The notes beneath the pieces were generated by a model. It did no database searches, was not told the DNA's origin, and was given only the letters and a program-made list of their open reading frames with translations. Below, piece by piece: positions 8,931 through 13,445 of a stretch of 64,000 nt of DNA. Source of the stretch: Thermoleophilia bacterium (GTDB lineage: Bacteria > Actinomycetota > Thermoleophilia > Miltoncostaeales > Miltoncostaeaceae); NCBI GenBank assembly GCA_009694365.1, contig SHVE01000002.1, positions 124,001 to 188,000 of the forward strand, in the 5' to 3' direction. The position numbers and the translations under genes are program-made. Within the stretch, counting starts at the first letter, position 1. The number at the start of each line of letters is the position of its first letter.

Positions 8931-9494
8931 GTGACACACGCCATCGAACGTCAGCGCCTCGCAACTCTCCTCTCGGAGCGTGCGCTGTTCCGCGAAGCGG
9001 TGGTTCTGTCATCGGGTCGGCGGTCCGATTACTACGTGGACGTACGTCAGGTGCTGCTCGATCCGGAGGGTGCGTACCTCTCGGGTCGCCTCGCCTATCC
9101 GGTCCTCGCCGTCTCCGAACCCGAGGCCGTGGGTGGGCTCACGCTAGGCGCCGACCCCCTCGTGTGTGCGGTAAGCGCAGCCGCCTACGCCGATGGTGTG
9201 CACTGGACCGGTTTCTTCGTGCGCAAGGAGGCGAAGAAGCACGGCCTGCAACACTGGATCGAGGGGCCGTTCGTGGAGGAGGGCACGCCGGTGGCCATCG
9301 TGGACGACGTCCTCACGAGCGGTGGCTCCATGATCACGGCTATCGAACGGGTGCGTGCTGCCGGTGCCACGGTGGTTTCGGCCCTCGTCGTGATCGACCG
9401 CGAGGAGGACGGCGGGCGGGCGACGGTGGAGGCCGCGTTGGACGGCGTGCCACTGCACGCCCTGTTCACCGCGCAGGAGTTGCTCGCCCTCTGA
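8931..9494 (+). CDS. pyrE: Orotate phosphoribosyltransferase
   Basis: Joins orotate and PRPP to form orotidine 5'-phosphate in pyrimidine synthesis. 187 aa from the chosen GTG, the family's usual length. Motifs: SSGRRSDYYVDVRQVLLDP (orotate side), LTLGADPLVCAVS, FFVRKEAKKHGLQHWIEG (flexible catalytic loop) and the PRPP-binding VAIVDDVLTSGGSMITAIE. rsgA follows with overlapping stop and start. No other pyr gene is near. Confidence 0.95.
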   Translation: MTHAIERQRLATLLSERALFREAVVLSSGRRSDYYVDVRQVLLDPEGAYLSGRLAYPVLAVSEPEAVGGLTLGADPLVCAVSAAAYADGVHWTGFFVRKEAKKHGLQHWIEGPFVEEGTPVAIVDDVLTSGGSMITAIERVRAAGATVVSALVVIDREEDGGRATVEAALDGVPLHALFTAQELLAL

Positions 9495-10387
9495 GTAACG
9501 CCGCTCCTCTCGTCATCCGCGTGGCTGGCCCGCTCGCCGAGGTCACGGATGATGCGGGGACGCGCGAGGTACGGCTGGCGCCACGGCTGCCGGGGGGCCC
9601 GCCCGTGGCCGGTGACCGCGTGCGCATCGACGACCGCGGAACCCAAGGAATAATCCGCGAGATCCTGCCGCGCCGGACCGTGTTGCAGCGCATCGGCAGC
9701 GGTGGGCGTGTACGTGTGGTGGTCGCCAACGCCGACCTGCTCGTCGTGGTGGCCGCCGTGGTCGAACCGCCGCTCGTGCCGACGCTCATCGACCGGTACG
9801 CCGTGGCCGCCGTGGCCGGGGGTCTCGACTTCGCACTCGTACTGACCAAGGCCGACCTGCCCCACGACGAGGCCGCGGTGGCCGCGGTCATGCGCCGCCA
9901 GCGAGCCGTGGGGCATCCGGTGCTCATCGGGTCGGCGCACGACTCGGTGCTCGTGGCGGACGTCCGGGATCTCATCGGCGATTCCCTCGCGACTCTCGCC
10001 GGTCTGTCGGGCGTGGGCAAGTCGACCCTGACCACTGCGCTCACCGGATACCCGCGTGCCACGGCGGACGTGTCGAGTCGCCTGCGAAGCGGTCGGCACA
10101 CCACGACCGACCCCCGCCTCATCCCCATTCCCGGTGGTGGCGCGGTGGTGGACACGGCGGGCGTGCGTGCGTTTTGGCTGCCACCGATGGAACCCGGCGA
10201 CATCGCCGCGGGGTTCCCCGACATCGTCGCGGCGGCGGTGCGGTGCCGGTTCCGGGGGTGTCGCCACATGGGGGATGCCGGCTGCGCCGTGGAGCACGAG
10301 GTCGATGTCGAACGCCTCACGTCGTACCGTGCCCTGGTCCAGGCTGCGGAATCGGCGGTCAAATTTGCACGCGGGCGGGTTTCGTGA
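9491..10387 (+). CDS. rsgA: Ribosome small-subunit GTPase
   Basis: Circularly permuted GTPase that checks late 30S assembly. An OB-fold comes first (residues about 8-70), then the permuted GTPase motifs in the order LTKADL (G4), GLSGVGKSTL (G1), RHTTTDPRL (G2/switch I) and VVDTAGVRAFW (G3). A zinc cluster C-x4-C-x-H-x5-C follows (CRFRGCRHMGDAGC). About 298 aa, normal. The start is uncertain: CTG at 9491 overlaps the pyrE stop (CTGA) and gives a natural N-terminus; the first conventional start in frame is GTG at 9521. Confidence 0.9.
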   Translation: MSNAAPLVIRVAGPLAEVTDDAGTREVRLAPRLPGGPPVAGDRVRIDDRGTQGIIREILPRRTVLQRIGSGGRVRVVVANADLLVVVAAVVEPPLVPTLIDRYAVAAVAGGLDFALVLTKADLPHDEAAVAAVMRRQRAVGHPVLIGSAHDSVLVADVRDLIGDSLATLAGLSGVGKSTLTTALTGYPRATADVSSRLRSGRHTTTDPRLIPIPGGGAVVDTAGVRAFWLPPMEPGDIAAGFPDIVAAAVRCRFRGCRHMGDAGCAVEHEVDVERLTSYRALVQAAESAVKFARGRVS

Positions 10388-10389
10388 CG

Positions 10390-10395
10390 TATGCT
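10390..10395 (+). promoter_or_regulatory. Candidate -10 box (TATGCT) for the repeat-protein gene
   Basis: TATGCT lies 62 bases before the ATG at 10458, directly after rsgA. The leader it implies ends with an AGAGG ribosome-binding site. It suggests the repeat protein has its own transcript. Confidence 0.4.
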
Positions 10396-10457
10396 TCAAA
10401 GCGTCGCCCGTTAGGGCGCAGGCAGCATCCCTATCCGACGCCCTGCAGAGGTAACCG

Positions 10458-10880
10458 ATGAGCACGAAGATCACCGGCTGGGAATCACTCGACAAGTGGG
10501 TCGGTTCGAGCGGGGCAGCGGCCCCGGCGGCCCCGGCGGCCAAGGTCACCGGCTGGGAATCACTCGACAAGTGGGTCGGTTCGGGCGGGGCAGCGGCCCC
10601 GGCAGCCCCGGCGGCCAAGGTCACCGGCTGGGAATCGCTCGACAAGTGGGTCGGTTCGGGCGGGGCAGCGGCCCCGGCAGCCCCGGCGGCCAAGGTCACC
10701 GGCTGGGAAGCGCTCGACAAGTGGGTCGGTTCGGGCGGGGCAGCGGCCCCGGCGGCCAAGATCACCGGCTGGGAAGCGCTCGACAAGTGGGTCGGTTCTG
10801 GCGGCGCAGCGGCCCCGGCCGCCGCCAAATCCGGTGGGGGCTTCATCGCCTGGCTCAAGAGGCTCTTCGGAGGCGCATAG
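10458..10880 (+). CDS. Five-repeat Trp/Ala-Pro protein with amphipathic C-terminal tail
   Basis: 140 aa, unrecognised family. After MST come five near-identical units, each a core (I/V)TGWE(S/A)LDKWVG followed by a flexible Ser/Gly and Ala/Pro linker. Units start at 10467, 10542, 10617, 10692 and 10758; the first three are 25 residues, the fourth 22. The copies are also nearly identical in DNA, pointing to recent amplification. A Gly-rich hinge leads to a C-terminal tail (GFIAWLKRLFGGA) that would form a short basic amphipathic helix. No signal peptide, cysteines or catalytic motif. AGAGG precedes the ATG; class I aldolase follows 57 bases later. A multivalent binding or scaffold protein is the inference. 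Confidence 0.8.
   Translation: MSTKITGWESLDKWVGSSGAAAPAAPAAKVTGWESLDKWVGSGGAAAPAAPAAKVTGWESLDKWVGSGGAAAPAAPAAKVTGWEALDKWVGSGGAAAPAAKITGWEALDKWVGSGGAAAPAAAKSGGGFIAWLKRLFGGA
10467..10823 (+). repeat. Five tandem 66-75-bp coding repeats
   Basis: Three 75-bp units (10467-10541, 10542-10616, 10617-10691) and two shorter ones from 10692 and 10758, lacking part of the Ala-Pro linker. Differences are few, and mainly swap Ser for Ala and Ile for Val. The register is in frame throughout. Confidence 0.9.
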
Positions 10881-10937
10881 TCTTCGGAGCGTGCGGGTAG
10901 CATCCTCAGGGTAAGCGCACCCTTGTGAGGAGACCGC

Positions 10938-12011
10938 ATGGCGTCGAGTGACGCATCCATCGGATGGATCGAGGAGATCCTCGGCTCTCAGGCCGAAGAT
11001 CTCCTCGGCCACCGTTGCGAGACCATCCCCGCCGCGAGCATCCACGCTCCGGGCCCCGACTTCATCGACCGGGTCACAGTCCAGAACGTCCGGCCCATCC
11101 CGGTGCTGCGATCGCTCCAGCAGTTGTACGGCCACGGGCGCCTCGGAGGTACGGGGTACCTGTCCATCTTCCCCGTGGATCAGGGTGTGGAGCACTCGGC
11201 TGGTGCGTCGTTCGCAGCCAACCCGGCGTACTTCGACCCAGCGAACATCGTGGAGCTCGCCATCGAGGGCGGGTGCAACGCGGTGGCCACGACCGCCGGG
11301 GTGCTCGGATCGGTGGCGCGCAAGTATGCGCACAGGATCCCGTTCATCCTGAAGATCAACCACAACGAGTTCCTCACCTACCCCAACGGGTTCGACCAGA
11401 TCATGTTCGCGTCGGTGGAGCAGGCCCGTGAAATGGGATGCGTTGCAGTGGGGGCCACCATCTACTTCGGGTCGGACGAGAGCACGCGCCAGATCGTGGA
11501 GGTGGCCGAGGCCTTCGAGCACGCGCACGCCCTGGGTATGGCCACGGTGCTGTGGTGCTACCTGCGCAACTCCGCCTTCTCGACCACGGACGAGGACTTC
11601 CACACGGCCACCGACCTCACGGGTCAGGCCAACCATCTCGGGGTCACCATCCAGGCCGACATCATCAAGCAGAAGGCACCGGCCACCGCCGCGTCGGGCT
11701 TCAACACCCTGGCCTTCGGCAAGACTGACCCGCGCATGTACTCACACCTTATGACCGGTCACCCCATCGACATGACGCGGTACCAGGTCGCCCACTGCTA
11801 CATGGGCCGTATCCCGCTCATCAACTCCGGTGGGGCCTCCGGCGACAACGACCTACACGACGTCGTCCGCGCCGCAGTGGTCAACAAGCGCGCCGGCGGC
11901 ACGGGCCTCATTAGCGGCCGCAAGGTGTTCCAGCGCTCCATGGCGGACGGCGTGGATCTCCTCCGTGCCATTCAAGACGTCTACCTCTGCAACGAGGTCG
12001 GCTTGGCGTAA
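10938..12011 (+). CDS. fbaB: Fructose-bisphosphate aldolase, class I (DhnA/FbaB type)
   Basis: Schiff-base aldolase interconverting fructose 1,6-bisphosphate with glyceraldehyde-3-phosphate and dihydroxyacetone phosphate. 357 aa, close to the E. coli FbaB length. Recognised by [60 protein letters not shown] and the phosphate-binding end (LINSGGASG.., [14 protein letters not shown]). No zinc-ligand set as in class II. GAGGAG lies before the ATG; a TAGCAT box near 10898 could be its own -10. No other glycolytic gene is close. Confidence 0.92.
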
Positions 12012-12023
12012 AGCCACCAGGTC

Positions 12024-12101
12024 GTCGTGGTGCGTACCCCGCTCATCACGGGAGGCGTCGTCCACCGGGTTGTCGTGGTGCGTACCCCGCTCATCACGGG
12101 A
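12024..12101. repeat. Two exact 30-bp direct repeats, 48-bp period
   Basis: 12024-12053 and 12072-12101 are identical over 30 bases, and similarity continues a few bases to the left of each. They lie in the gap between the aldolase and the Nudix gene. No gene, hairpin or promoter explains them. Confidence 0.85.
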
Positions 12102-12161
12102 CCCCGCATCACGTGAGGGATCAGCCCACCGGGTCCCCTTGGCCCGTTCCCCGCGGGGGCG

Positions 12162-12695: not shown

Positions 12696-13445
12696 TCAGG
12701 GGGTGGTGCCGAGGAACACGACGGTGAGACTCGGCGTGGTCACCGTGACGCTCGGGGAGCATGAGGGCGTCGCCATCTGGGTGATTTGGAGCTTCACGTT
12801 GTAACTGCCCGGCGGAAGGTCGACCGGTGTCGACCCCTGGGTCACGATTCCCTGGACGGACAGCGAGGTGAACCCGGTTCCGACGGTGATCGGGTCACCA
12901 CTCTCGGTGGAGCCCACGGATCCCGCGTCGACGGTGACGGCCATCATCGCGAGGGATGCCGCGCTGCCGGTGAGGGTCGCCTGGCCGGACACCAGGAGCC
13001 GGACGACTGTCGTCGGGGTGATGACGGTGTTGACGAGATCCAACGTCGAACACCCGGTGACCGCCCCTCCCACATTCGTGAACGTCCGTCCCCACGTCGG
13101 CCCGACGCCACCCGTCGCCCCGGCGGCACCCCCGGCTCCGGGCACTCCGCCCGCGCCCTGCAGGCCGGTGGATCCCGCGACTCCAGTCGGGCCCGTCAAG
13201 CCGGGCAGGCCCGTTTCGCCCTGCGCGCCGGGTGGCAACTGGCCCGGCTTGAAATCCACCGCGAAGAGCGAGTGCTGGCGGACCTTCGAGGAGTCCACGG
13301 CACCCGCGCGGATCTGGGCGGGGCCGACCGAGTTGCGGGGGAGCACGGTGACGGCGTAGCCGGTTCCGGCCAGCGCGACTCCCAGAGCGACGAGCGCGAC
13401 AACCATCGAGGGCGATGGCCAGCGGATGTGGCGCGGGTGTTGCAT
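12696..13445 (-). CDS. Exported protein with short collagen-like (Gly-x-x) region
   Basis: 249 aa. N-terminal signal or anchor helix (about 13-34, SMVVALVALGVALAGTGYAVTV), then a conserved LPRNSVGPAQIRAGAVDSSKVRQHSL segment. Gly-x-x triplets follow from about 75 to 110 (GAQGETGLPGLTGPTG..), then a C-terminal beta-rich domain of about 130 residues. This arrangement is common in Thermoleophilia, where many paralogues occur; no function is established. The collagen part is too short for a stable long triple helix by itself, so trimerisation of the C-terminal domain is an inference. TAGGGT at 13453-13458 lies seven bases before the ATG. Confidence 0.85.
   Translation of the reverse strand: MQHPRHIRWPSPSMVVALVALGVALAGTGYAVTVLPRNSVGPAQIRAGAVDSSKVRQHSLFAVDFKPGQLPPGAQGETGLPGLTGPTGVAGSTGLQGAGGVPGAGGAAGATGGVGPTWGRTFTNVGGAVTGCSTLDLVNTVITPTTVVRLLVSGQATLTGSAASLAMMAVTVDAGSVGSTESGDPITVGTGFTSLSVQGIVTQGSTPVDLPPGSYNVKLQITQMATPSCSPSVTVTTPSLTVVFLGTTP

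What the first reader, a model, noticed from the sequence alone, without database searches (positions are those of the whole stretch)
10458..10880. Unrecognised five-repeat protein with a C-terminal amphipathic tail
Seen: 140 aa built from five copies of a TGWE(S/A)LDKWVG core joined by Ala-Pro/Gly linkers, nearly identical in DNA, with a basic amphipathic C-terminal helix (FIAWLKRLF). Such multivalent, tail-bearing designs are typical of scaffold or encapsulation proteins (compare amphipathic targeting peptides joined to Ala/Pro linkers in microcompartment cargo) and membrane-tethered adaptors. None is known to me with this repeat. It lies between rsgA and a class I aldolase with its own likely promoter. 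This is the strongest candidate for something undescribed.
Basis: partly seen in the sequence, partly recalled or inferred. Interest (0 to 1): 0.78.

Follow-up and report, generated by a model that had tools for sequence, protein, structure and literature searches.

The report
Membrane-tethered repeat adaptor of Miltoncostaeales
A small unnamed protein, found in one bacterial order and apparently in every member whose genome can be checked, strings 2 to 14 copies of one nearly unchanging 11-residue motif on floppy linkers and ends in a membrane-anchoring tail like that of the cell-division protein MinD, so it probably gathers some still unknown partner at the cell membrane.

Summary
Window 10458-10880 encodes 140 aa: five TGWE(S/A)LDKWVG cores on Ala/Gly/Pro linkers and a basic amphipathic C-terminal helix. 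It is a real gene. It was found in 35 of 42 genomes of its family (order Miltoncostaeales, class Thermoleophilia); in the other seven no rsgA locus with intact 3' flank was found. It was not credibly found in 357 other class genomes or 386 sampled phylum genomes. Copy number runs from 2 to 14. T, G, W, E and L are identical in 163/163 repeats (V in 162), while linkers drift (pN/pS 0.19 in the cores). Each genome carries one such gene; the motif occurs in no other gene.

The tail contains LKRLFGG, identical to the E. coli MinD membrane-targeting sequence KGFLKRLFGG. One genus replaces it with a transmembrane helix. Microcompartment shell proteins and RuBisCO are absent from the family, and encapsulin from this genus. 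The aldolase neighbour is genus-specific; rsgA always lies upstream, and the gene has its own conserved promoter.

Best explanation: a membrane-anchored, disordered, multivalent adaptor presenting many copies of one short helical binding motif to an unknown cytoplasmic partner. Membrane anchoring is well supported; the partner is inferred. It belongs to no known protein family.

The parts
10458..10880 (+). REP: 140-aa tandem-motif protein (pI 9.3, 56% A/G/P/S)
   Evidence: ORF; homologues at the same locus in Miltoncostaeales; pN/pS 0.19
10473..10505 (+). core 1 TGWESLDKWVG
   Evidence: predicted helix
10548..10580 (+). core 2 TGWESLDKWVG
   Evidence: predicted helix
10623..10655 (+). core 3 TGWESLDKWVG
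   Evidence: short predicted helix
10698..10730 (+). core 4 TGWEALDKWVG
   Evidence: predicted helix
10764..10796 (+). core 5 TGWEALDKWVG
   Evidence: predicted helix
10836..10877 (+). C-terminal amphipathic tail GGFIAWLKRLFGGA, MinD-type membrane-targeting sequence
   Evidence: predicted helix 130-137, best-scoring part of the model; LKRLFGG identical to the E. coli MinD MTS tag; replaced by a TM helix in L071
10390..10395 (+). probable -10 TATGCT, 3 nt after the rsgA stop codon
   Evidence: ACGTATGMT conserved in 17/17 congeneric upstream regions
10406..10417 (+). GCCC-GTTA-GGGC stem-loop in the probable 5' leader
   Evidence: GCCC-N4-GGGC, with variable loop, in most congeners
10447..10451 (+). 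ribosome-binding site AGAGG
   Evidence: conserved AGAGGTA just before the ATG in the genus
9494..10387 (+). rsgA, conserved upstream neighbour
   Evidence: Pfam PF03193 / TIGR00157; upstream of REP in every locus with sequence available
10938..12011 (+). fbaB class I fructose-bisphosphate aldolase; adjacent only in this genus, not part of the system
   Evidence: NF006707 611 bits; absent next to REP in other genera

Best explanation
REP is a cytoplasmic, intrinsically disordered adaptor fixed to the inner face of the cell membrane by its C-terminal amphipathic helix, a MinD-type membrane-targeting sequence. Each TGWEALDKWVG unit becomes a short N-capped helix (T-x-x-E capping box) with one conserved face (W3, L6, W9, V10). 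It acts as a short linear binding motif for one cytoplasmic partner. Two to fourteen copies on flexible Ala/Gly/Pro linkers give avidity, so the partner is clustered at the membrane (stickers and spacers). Shown by sequence: the repeats, their extreme and selective conservation, the single locus, the MinD-like tail and its swap for a TM helix. Inferred: membrane binding in the cell, cytoplasmic orientation (no signal peptide seen), the existence and identity of a protein partner, and clustering.
For: 1) Core positions T, G, W, E, L are 163/163 and V 162/163 across 12 genera, while positions 5, 7, 8 vary and linkers drift in sequence and length (11-37 aa). A generic membrane helix would tolerate L/I/F/V exchange; the tail does (F/L, M/I/F/L/W/V, W/F/A/K), the core does not. 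2) Copy number varies from 2 to 14 with the motif intact, as expected of valency. 3) The window tail has LKRLFGG, identical over 7 residues to the E. coli MinD MTS KGFLKRLFGG, with GF upstream and three extra residues (IAW). An AKI insertion into the MinD MTS, adding one helical turn, raised membrane affinity (PMC8155659). The tail moment is above shuffles (P 0.01-0.05). 4) In G029/L071 the tail is replaced by an uncharged TM segment in the same ORF, with no amphipathic tail in the other frames. 5) In genus g8 an apolipoprotein-like amphipathic stretch precedes the tail (below cut-off). 6) AlphaFold2 puts short helices on each core and the tail with unfolded linkers (mean pLDDT 53.6, no global fold). 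7) No other gene in these genomes carries the motif, as expected if REP alone presents it.
Against: No partner was identified. The tail resemblance is 7 contiguous residues, and a profile search of PDB with the tail did not return MinD (solved MinD chains may lack the tail). The TM variant is one genome (7% contamination estimate). AlphaFold confidence is low throughout. No expression or localisation data exist. Core amphipathicity is only borderline against shuffles (P about 0.03-0.07).
Confidence: 0.6

Rival explanations
1. The repeats bind each other rather than a separate partner: REP self-assembles into a membrane-attached homotypic condensate or mesh, like trimerising encapsulation peptides or the oligomerising stickers of PYCO1.
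For: Short helix plus disordered linker peptides can form trimeric bundles and condensates (PMC12339742); PYCO1 stickers oligomerise (PMC10288592). The exclusive presence of the motif in one gene fits self-recognition.
Against: AlphaFold did not build a compact fold from the five cores of one chain (pTM 0.17). T1 and E4, which need not face a hydrophobic bundle, are invariant, though they may serve as helix cap.
Confidence: 0.2
2. The cores themselves lie in the membrane surface, so REP is a membrane-coating or membrane-stabilising protein (apolipoprotein/LEA-like) with no protein partner.
For: Each core is a short helix with W, L, W, V on one face; g8 members have an apolipoprotein-like segment and g4 has amphipathic linkers.
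Against: Exact residue identity at W3, L6, V10 is not needed for membrane partition; W9 becomes H in genera g3, g5, g9, which weakens membrane insertion; core P values are borderline.
Confidence: 0.12
3. Encapsulation or cargo-targeting protein of a microcompartment or encapsulin shell.
For: A short amphipathic helix on an Ala/Pro linker at the C-terminus looks like an encapsulation peptide.
Against: BMC shell domain PF00936 in 0/42 family genomes, with working controls; encapsulin PF04454 in 0/20 genomes of this genus and only 8/42 of the family.
Confidence: 0.02
4. Scaffold for the neighbouring class I aldolase FbaB.
For: fbaB follows REP by 57 nt in the window and follows REP in the congeneric loci with downstream sequence.
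Against: Outside this genus fbaB is not beside REP, which keeps the same motif.
Confidence: 0.04
5. Repeat expansion without function, or a precursor of small peptides.
For: Repeats within one gene are nearly identical in DNA, showing recent duplication.
Against: pN/pS 0.19 and 29 DNA encodings of one core; kept in reduced 1.5-Mb genomes; no leader or cleavage pattern and a conserved anchor tail.
Confidence: 0.02

Closest known systems
EPYC1 / CsLinker / PYCO1 pyrenoid linker proteins
   Same: Largely disordered, repeated short helical stickers at regular spacing (PMC11570498 criteria: disorder, repeating structured elements, 20-120 residue spacing; REP repeats are 22-25 aa apart in the window).
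   Different: Eukaryotic; their client RuBisCO is absent from all 42 Miltoncostaeales genomes; no detected sequence relation.
MinD C-terminal membrane-targeting sequence (E. coli KGFLKRLFGG)
   Same: C-terminal position, amphipathic basic helix, LKRLFGG identical.
   Different: REP has no ATPase domain; its helix is three residues longer; no MinD above the family cut-off in 37 genomes of the family and class. Likely convergent.
Bacterial microcompartment encapsulation peptides
   Same: Short amphipathic helix joined to a disordered linker.
   Different: No shell proteins in these genomes; the repeat copies lie in one protein, not on enzymes.
SepF / FtsA-type membrane adaptors of FtsZ
   Same: Amphipathic membrane helix coupled to binding of a cytoplasmic partner (from the papers listed and general knowledge).
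   Different: Folded partner-binding domains; REP has only repeated linear motifs.

Membership tests
Multivalent sticker-spacer linker (EPYC1-like), as a way of working | largely disordered with repeating short structured elements 20-120 residues apart | tested here: met
   AlphaFold helices only at cores and tail; period 22-25 aa in the window; linkers 11-37 aa family-wide
Multivalent sticker-spacer linker (EPYC1-like), as a way of working | stickers bind a defined client and cross-link it | not testable with these tools
   partner unknown
EPYC1/PYCO1 family proper | RuBisCO client present | tested here: not met
   PF00016 0/42
MinD-type membrane-targeting sequence | C-terminal basic amphipathic helix resembling the MinD MTS | tested here: met
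   LKRLFGG identity; predicted helix 130-137; moment P 0.03
MinD-type membrane-targeting sequence | binds lipid bilayers | not testable with these tools
   indirect: TM helix replaces it in L071
MinD protein family | deviant Walker A ATPase domain | tested here: not met
   no Pfam or NCBIfam match
BMC encapsulation-peptide cargo | BMC shell proteins in the genome | tested here: not met
   PF00936 0/42
Encapsulin cargo | encapsulin shell gene in the genome | tested here: not met
   PF04454 absent in own genome and all of genus g1; 8/42 in family
Any described repeat or domain family | profile match above curated cut-off | tested here: not met
   Pfam, NCBIfam, PHROGs, PDB

The most novel reading that the evidence does not exclude
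Miltoncostaeales possess an order-specific, membrane-anchored multivalent scaffold, a bacterial counterpart of EPYC1 tied to the membrane, that organises a membrane-bound condensate or a patch of an unknown client through an undescribed binding motif TGWExL[DE]KWV, with valency tuned between species by repeat number.
Probability: 0.3. Interest if true: 0.75.

Novelty: new variant of a known kind. Interest (0 to 1): 0.56.

Why it matters
A single-copy gene that marks one bacterial order, keeps one 11-residue motif nearly unchanged through 12 genera, and varies mainly in how many copies it carries is a natural experiment in valency. If the partner is found, it gives a new peptide-binding pair and a natural, tunable membrane scaffold for synthetic biology. 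It would also be a first handle on cell organisation in an order with few cultured species. A complete single-contig family genome (G030) suggests a cultivable relative could be used.

Tried and rejected
Known domain: no match (the weak NCOA1, beta-galactosidase and PHROG hits are chance or low complexity). Mobile or phage origin: no match in phages, plasmids or viral contigs. Motif as a tag on other proteins: not found; all exact-pattern hits in family genomes lie in this gene except one chance hit in G021 (one search used a pattern one base short and is void). Gene missing in relatives: the seven absences all trace to a missing or truncated rsgA locus. BMC, encapsulin, RuBisCO. Aldolase partner. 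MinD in the organism: no hit above the family cut-off, only weaker matches of the kind given by ParA-type ATPases. G029 tail as a frameshift artefact: no tail in other frames. Literature search for the motif: nothing. A fold search was not run because the model is low-confidence.

Full report
What is there. The ORF 10458-10880 (+) encodes MSTKITGWESLDKWVGSSGAAAPAAPAAKV... with five TGWE[SA]LDKWVG cores 22-25 residues apart and the ending SGGGFIAWLKRLFGGA. No Pfam, NCBIfam, PHROGs or PDB family matches the repeats above cut-off, and the motif occurs in no held paper. I call the gene REP here.

It is a conserved gene. Protein search of relatives finds homologues throughout the window's family, whose named records include Miltoncostaeales (taxonomy). 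A profile of single repeats (A1) finds it in 35 of 42 family genomes. Among the other 357 genomes of the class there is only one marginal hit, E 8e-4. In a phylum sample of 396, all 10 matches lie in the family. In the seven family genomes without a hit, the rsgA locus is missing or cut by a contig end, so the data are consistent with presence in every member. No phage, plasmid or viral contig carries it.

One locus, one motif-bearing gene. In every locus with flanking sequence the order is pyrE-rsgA-REP. Downstream, fbaB follows only in the window's genus. Elsewhere a NUDIX gene, an ASCH-domain gene and groEL are found. An exact DNA pattern for WExLxxWV matches up to 14 times per family genome, all inside this gene except one chance match in G021. 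It is therefore not a docking tag shared by enzymes.

Selection. Over 163 repeats, positions T, G, W, E, L are invariant and V is 162/163. Position 9 is W in 155, H in 7 (genera g3, g5, g9) and Y in 1. Position 7 swaps D/E freely, and linkers are 77% A/G/S/P and 11-37 aa long. The repeat finder in that call required W or L, but it recovered no weaker copies beyond the strict pattern. One core peptide has 29 DNA encodings. The ratio pN/pS of cores between species is 0.19, a rough Nei-Gojobori-like count.

Tail. The last residues are conserved in character but not in letter: GG[FL]xx[WFAK]L[KR]x[LFIV]FGG in most members. LKRLFGG is the E. coli MinD membrane-targeting tag KGFLKRLFGG (PMC5471200), with one more helical turn. 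In MinD, adding a turn (AKI) increases membrane affinity, and the single E. coli MTS alone does not hold monomeric GFP at the membrane (PMC8155659). In G029 (L071) the tail is replaced by ...GWALGIALLVIGVVILIVALLS, a transmembrane segment, in the same ORF; no tail is left in the other frames. Swapping an amphipathic anchor for a TM helix is the strongest evidence that the tail's job is membrane attachment. It is one genome.

Structure. AlphaFold2 on a 21-member alignment gives helices 7-16, 33-41, 59-64, 82-91, 104-113 and 130-137, with unfolded linkers, mean pLDDT 53.6 and pTM 0.17. This fits isolated short helices and gives no global fold. T-x-x-E at the start of each core is a classical helix capping box (general knowledge).

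Transcription. In the window's genus ACGTATGMT lies just after rsgA in 17/17, followed in most by a GCCC-N4-GGGC stem-loop and AGAGGTA. In the other genera all 16 upstream regions have TTGACC (once TTGACG, once TTGCGT), 17 to 19 nt, then TA(A/G)(G/C)(T/C)T. In 11 of 16 an inverted repeat TTYGTGC-N6-GCACRAA overlaps the -10 end (mean best arm match 5.4 of 7 against 4.15 +/- 0.19 in shuffles). This looks like an operator, geometrically similar to CRP/FNR-type sites (resemblance from memory only). The promoter lies at or near the rsgA stop codon, which may by itself explain why rsgA stays upstream.

What it does. Specific residue identity in the core, tolerance in the tail and linkers, variable copy number and exclusive use in one gene together favour a multivalent linear-motif adaptor on the membrane. 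The best analogues in mode of action are the pyrenoid linkers, disordered with regularly spaced short helices (PMC11570498; PMC10288592). It is not a member: RuBisCO is absent. Encapsulation is excluded as a general role. Self-association is the main rival, since helical encapsulation peptides can form trimers and condensates (PMC12339742). The partner is not known, and I could not identify it with these tools.

Verdict. A real, undescribed, order-specific protein family. Membrane anchoring is likely (about 0.8) and specific protein recognition by the cores probable (about 0.65).

Noticed in passing
upstream of REP in 16 non-g1 loci (e.g. L069, L102, L075): Conserved promoter TTGACC-N17/18-TARGTT with an operator-like palindrome TTYGTGC-N6-GCACRAA over the -10 end in 11 of 16; the regulator is unknown and the site is absent in the window's genus.
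   Followed up: partly
window 12014-12101: Two near-identical 40-nt direct repeats, 48 nt apart, directly downstream of fbaB, with a third partial copy at 12126.
   Followed up: no
window 12696-13445 (-): ORF with collagen-like Gly-X-X stretches (GLPGLTGPTGVAGSTGLQGAGG...), possibly a surface protein.
   Followed up: no
L088, L104 versus L075, L102: Some family genomes outside the genus (G027, G135) carry two RsgA-type GTPases: the short one linked to pyrE and REP, and a second, 386-388 aa one.
   Followed up: no
N-terminus of REP outside the genus (L061, L063, L065, L070, L102): A second conserved N-terminal motif RFxPPxAGGAxxTGW, lost in the window's genus; possibly another linear motif.
   Followed up: no
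L033, L037, L047, L040: Public records carrying this locus have titles such as Bifidobacterium breve or Acidobacteria although the sequence is Miltoncostaeales-like: probable mislabelled MAGs.
   Followed up: no
window 9185-10960 (-): A 591-aa antisense ORF is open across rsgA and REP, a usual by-product of high G+C coding.
   Followed up: no
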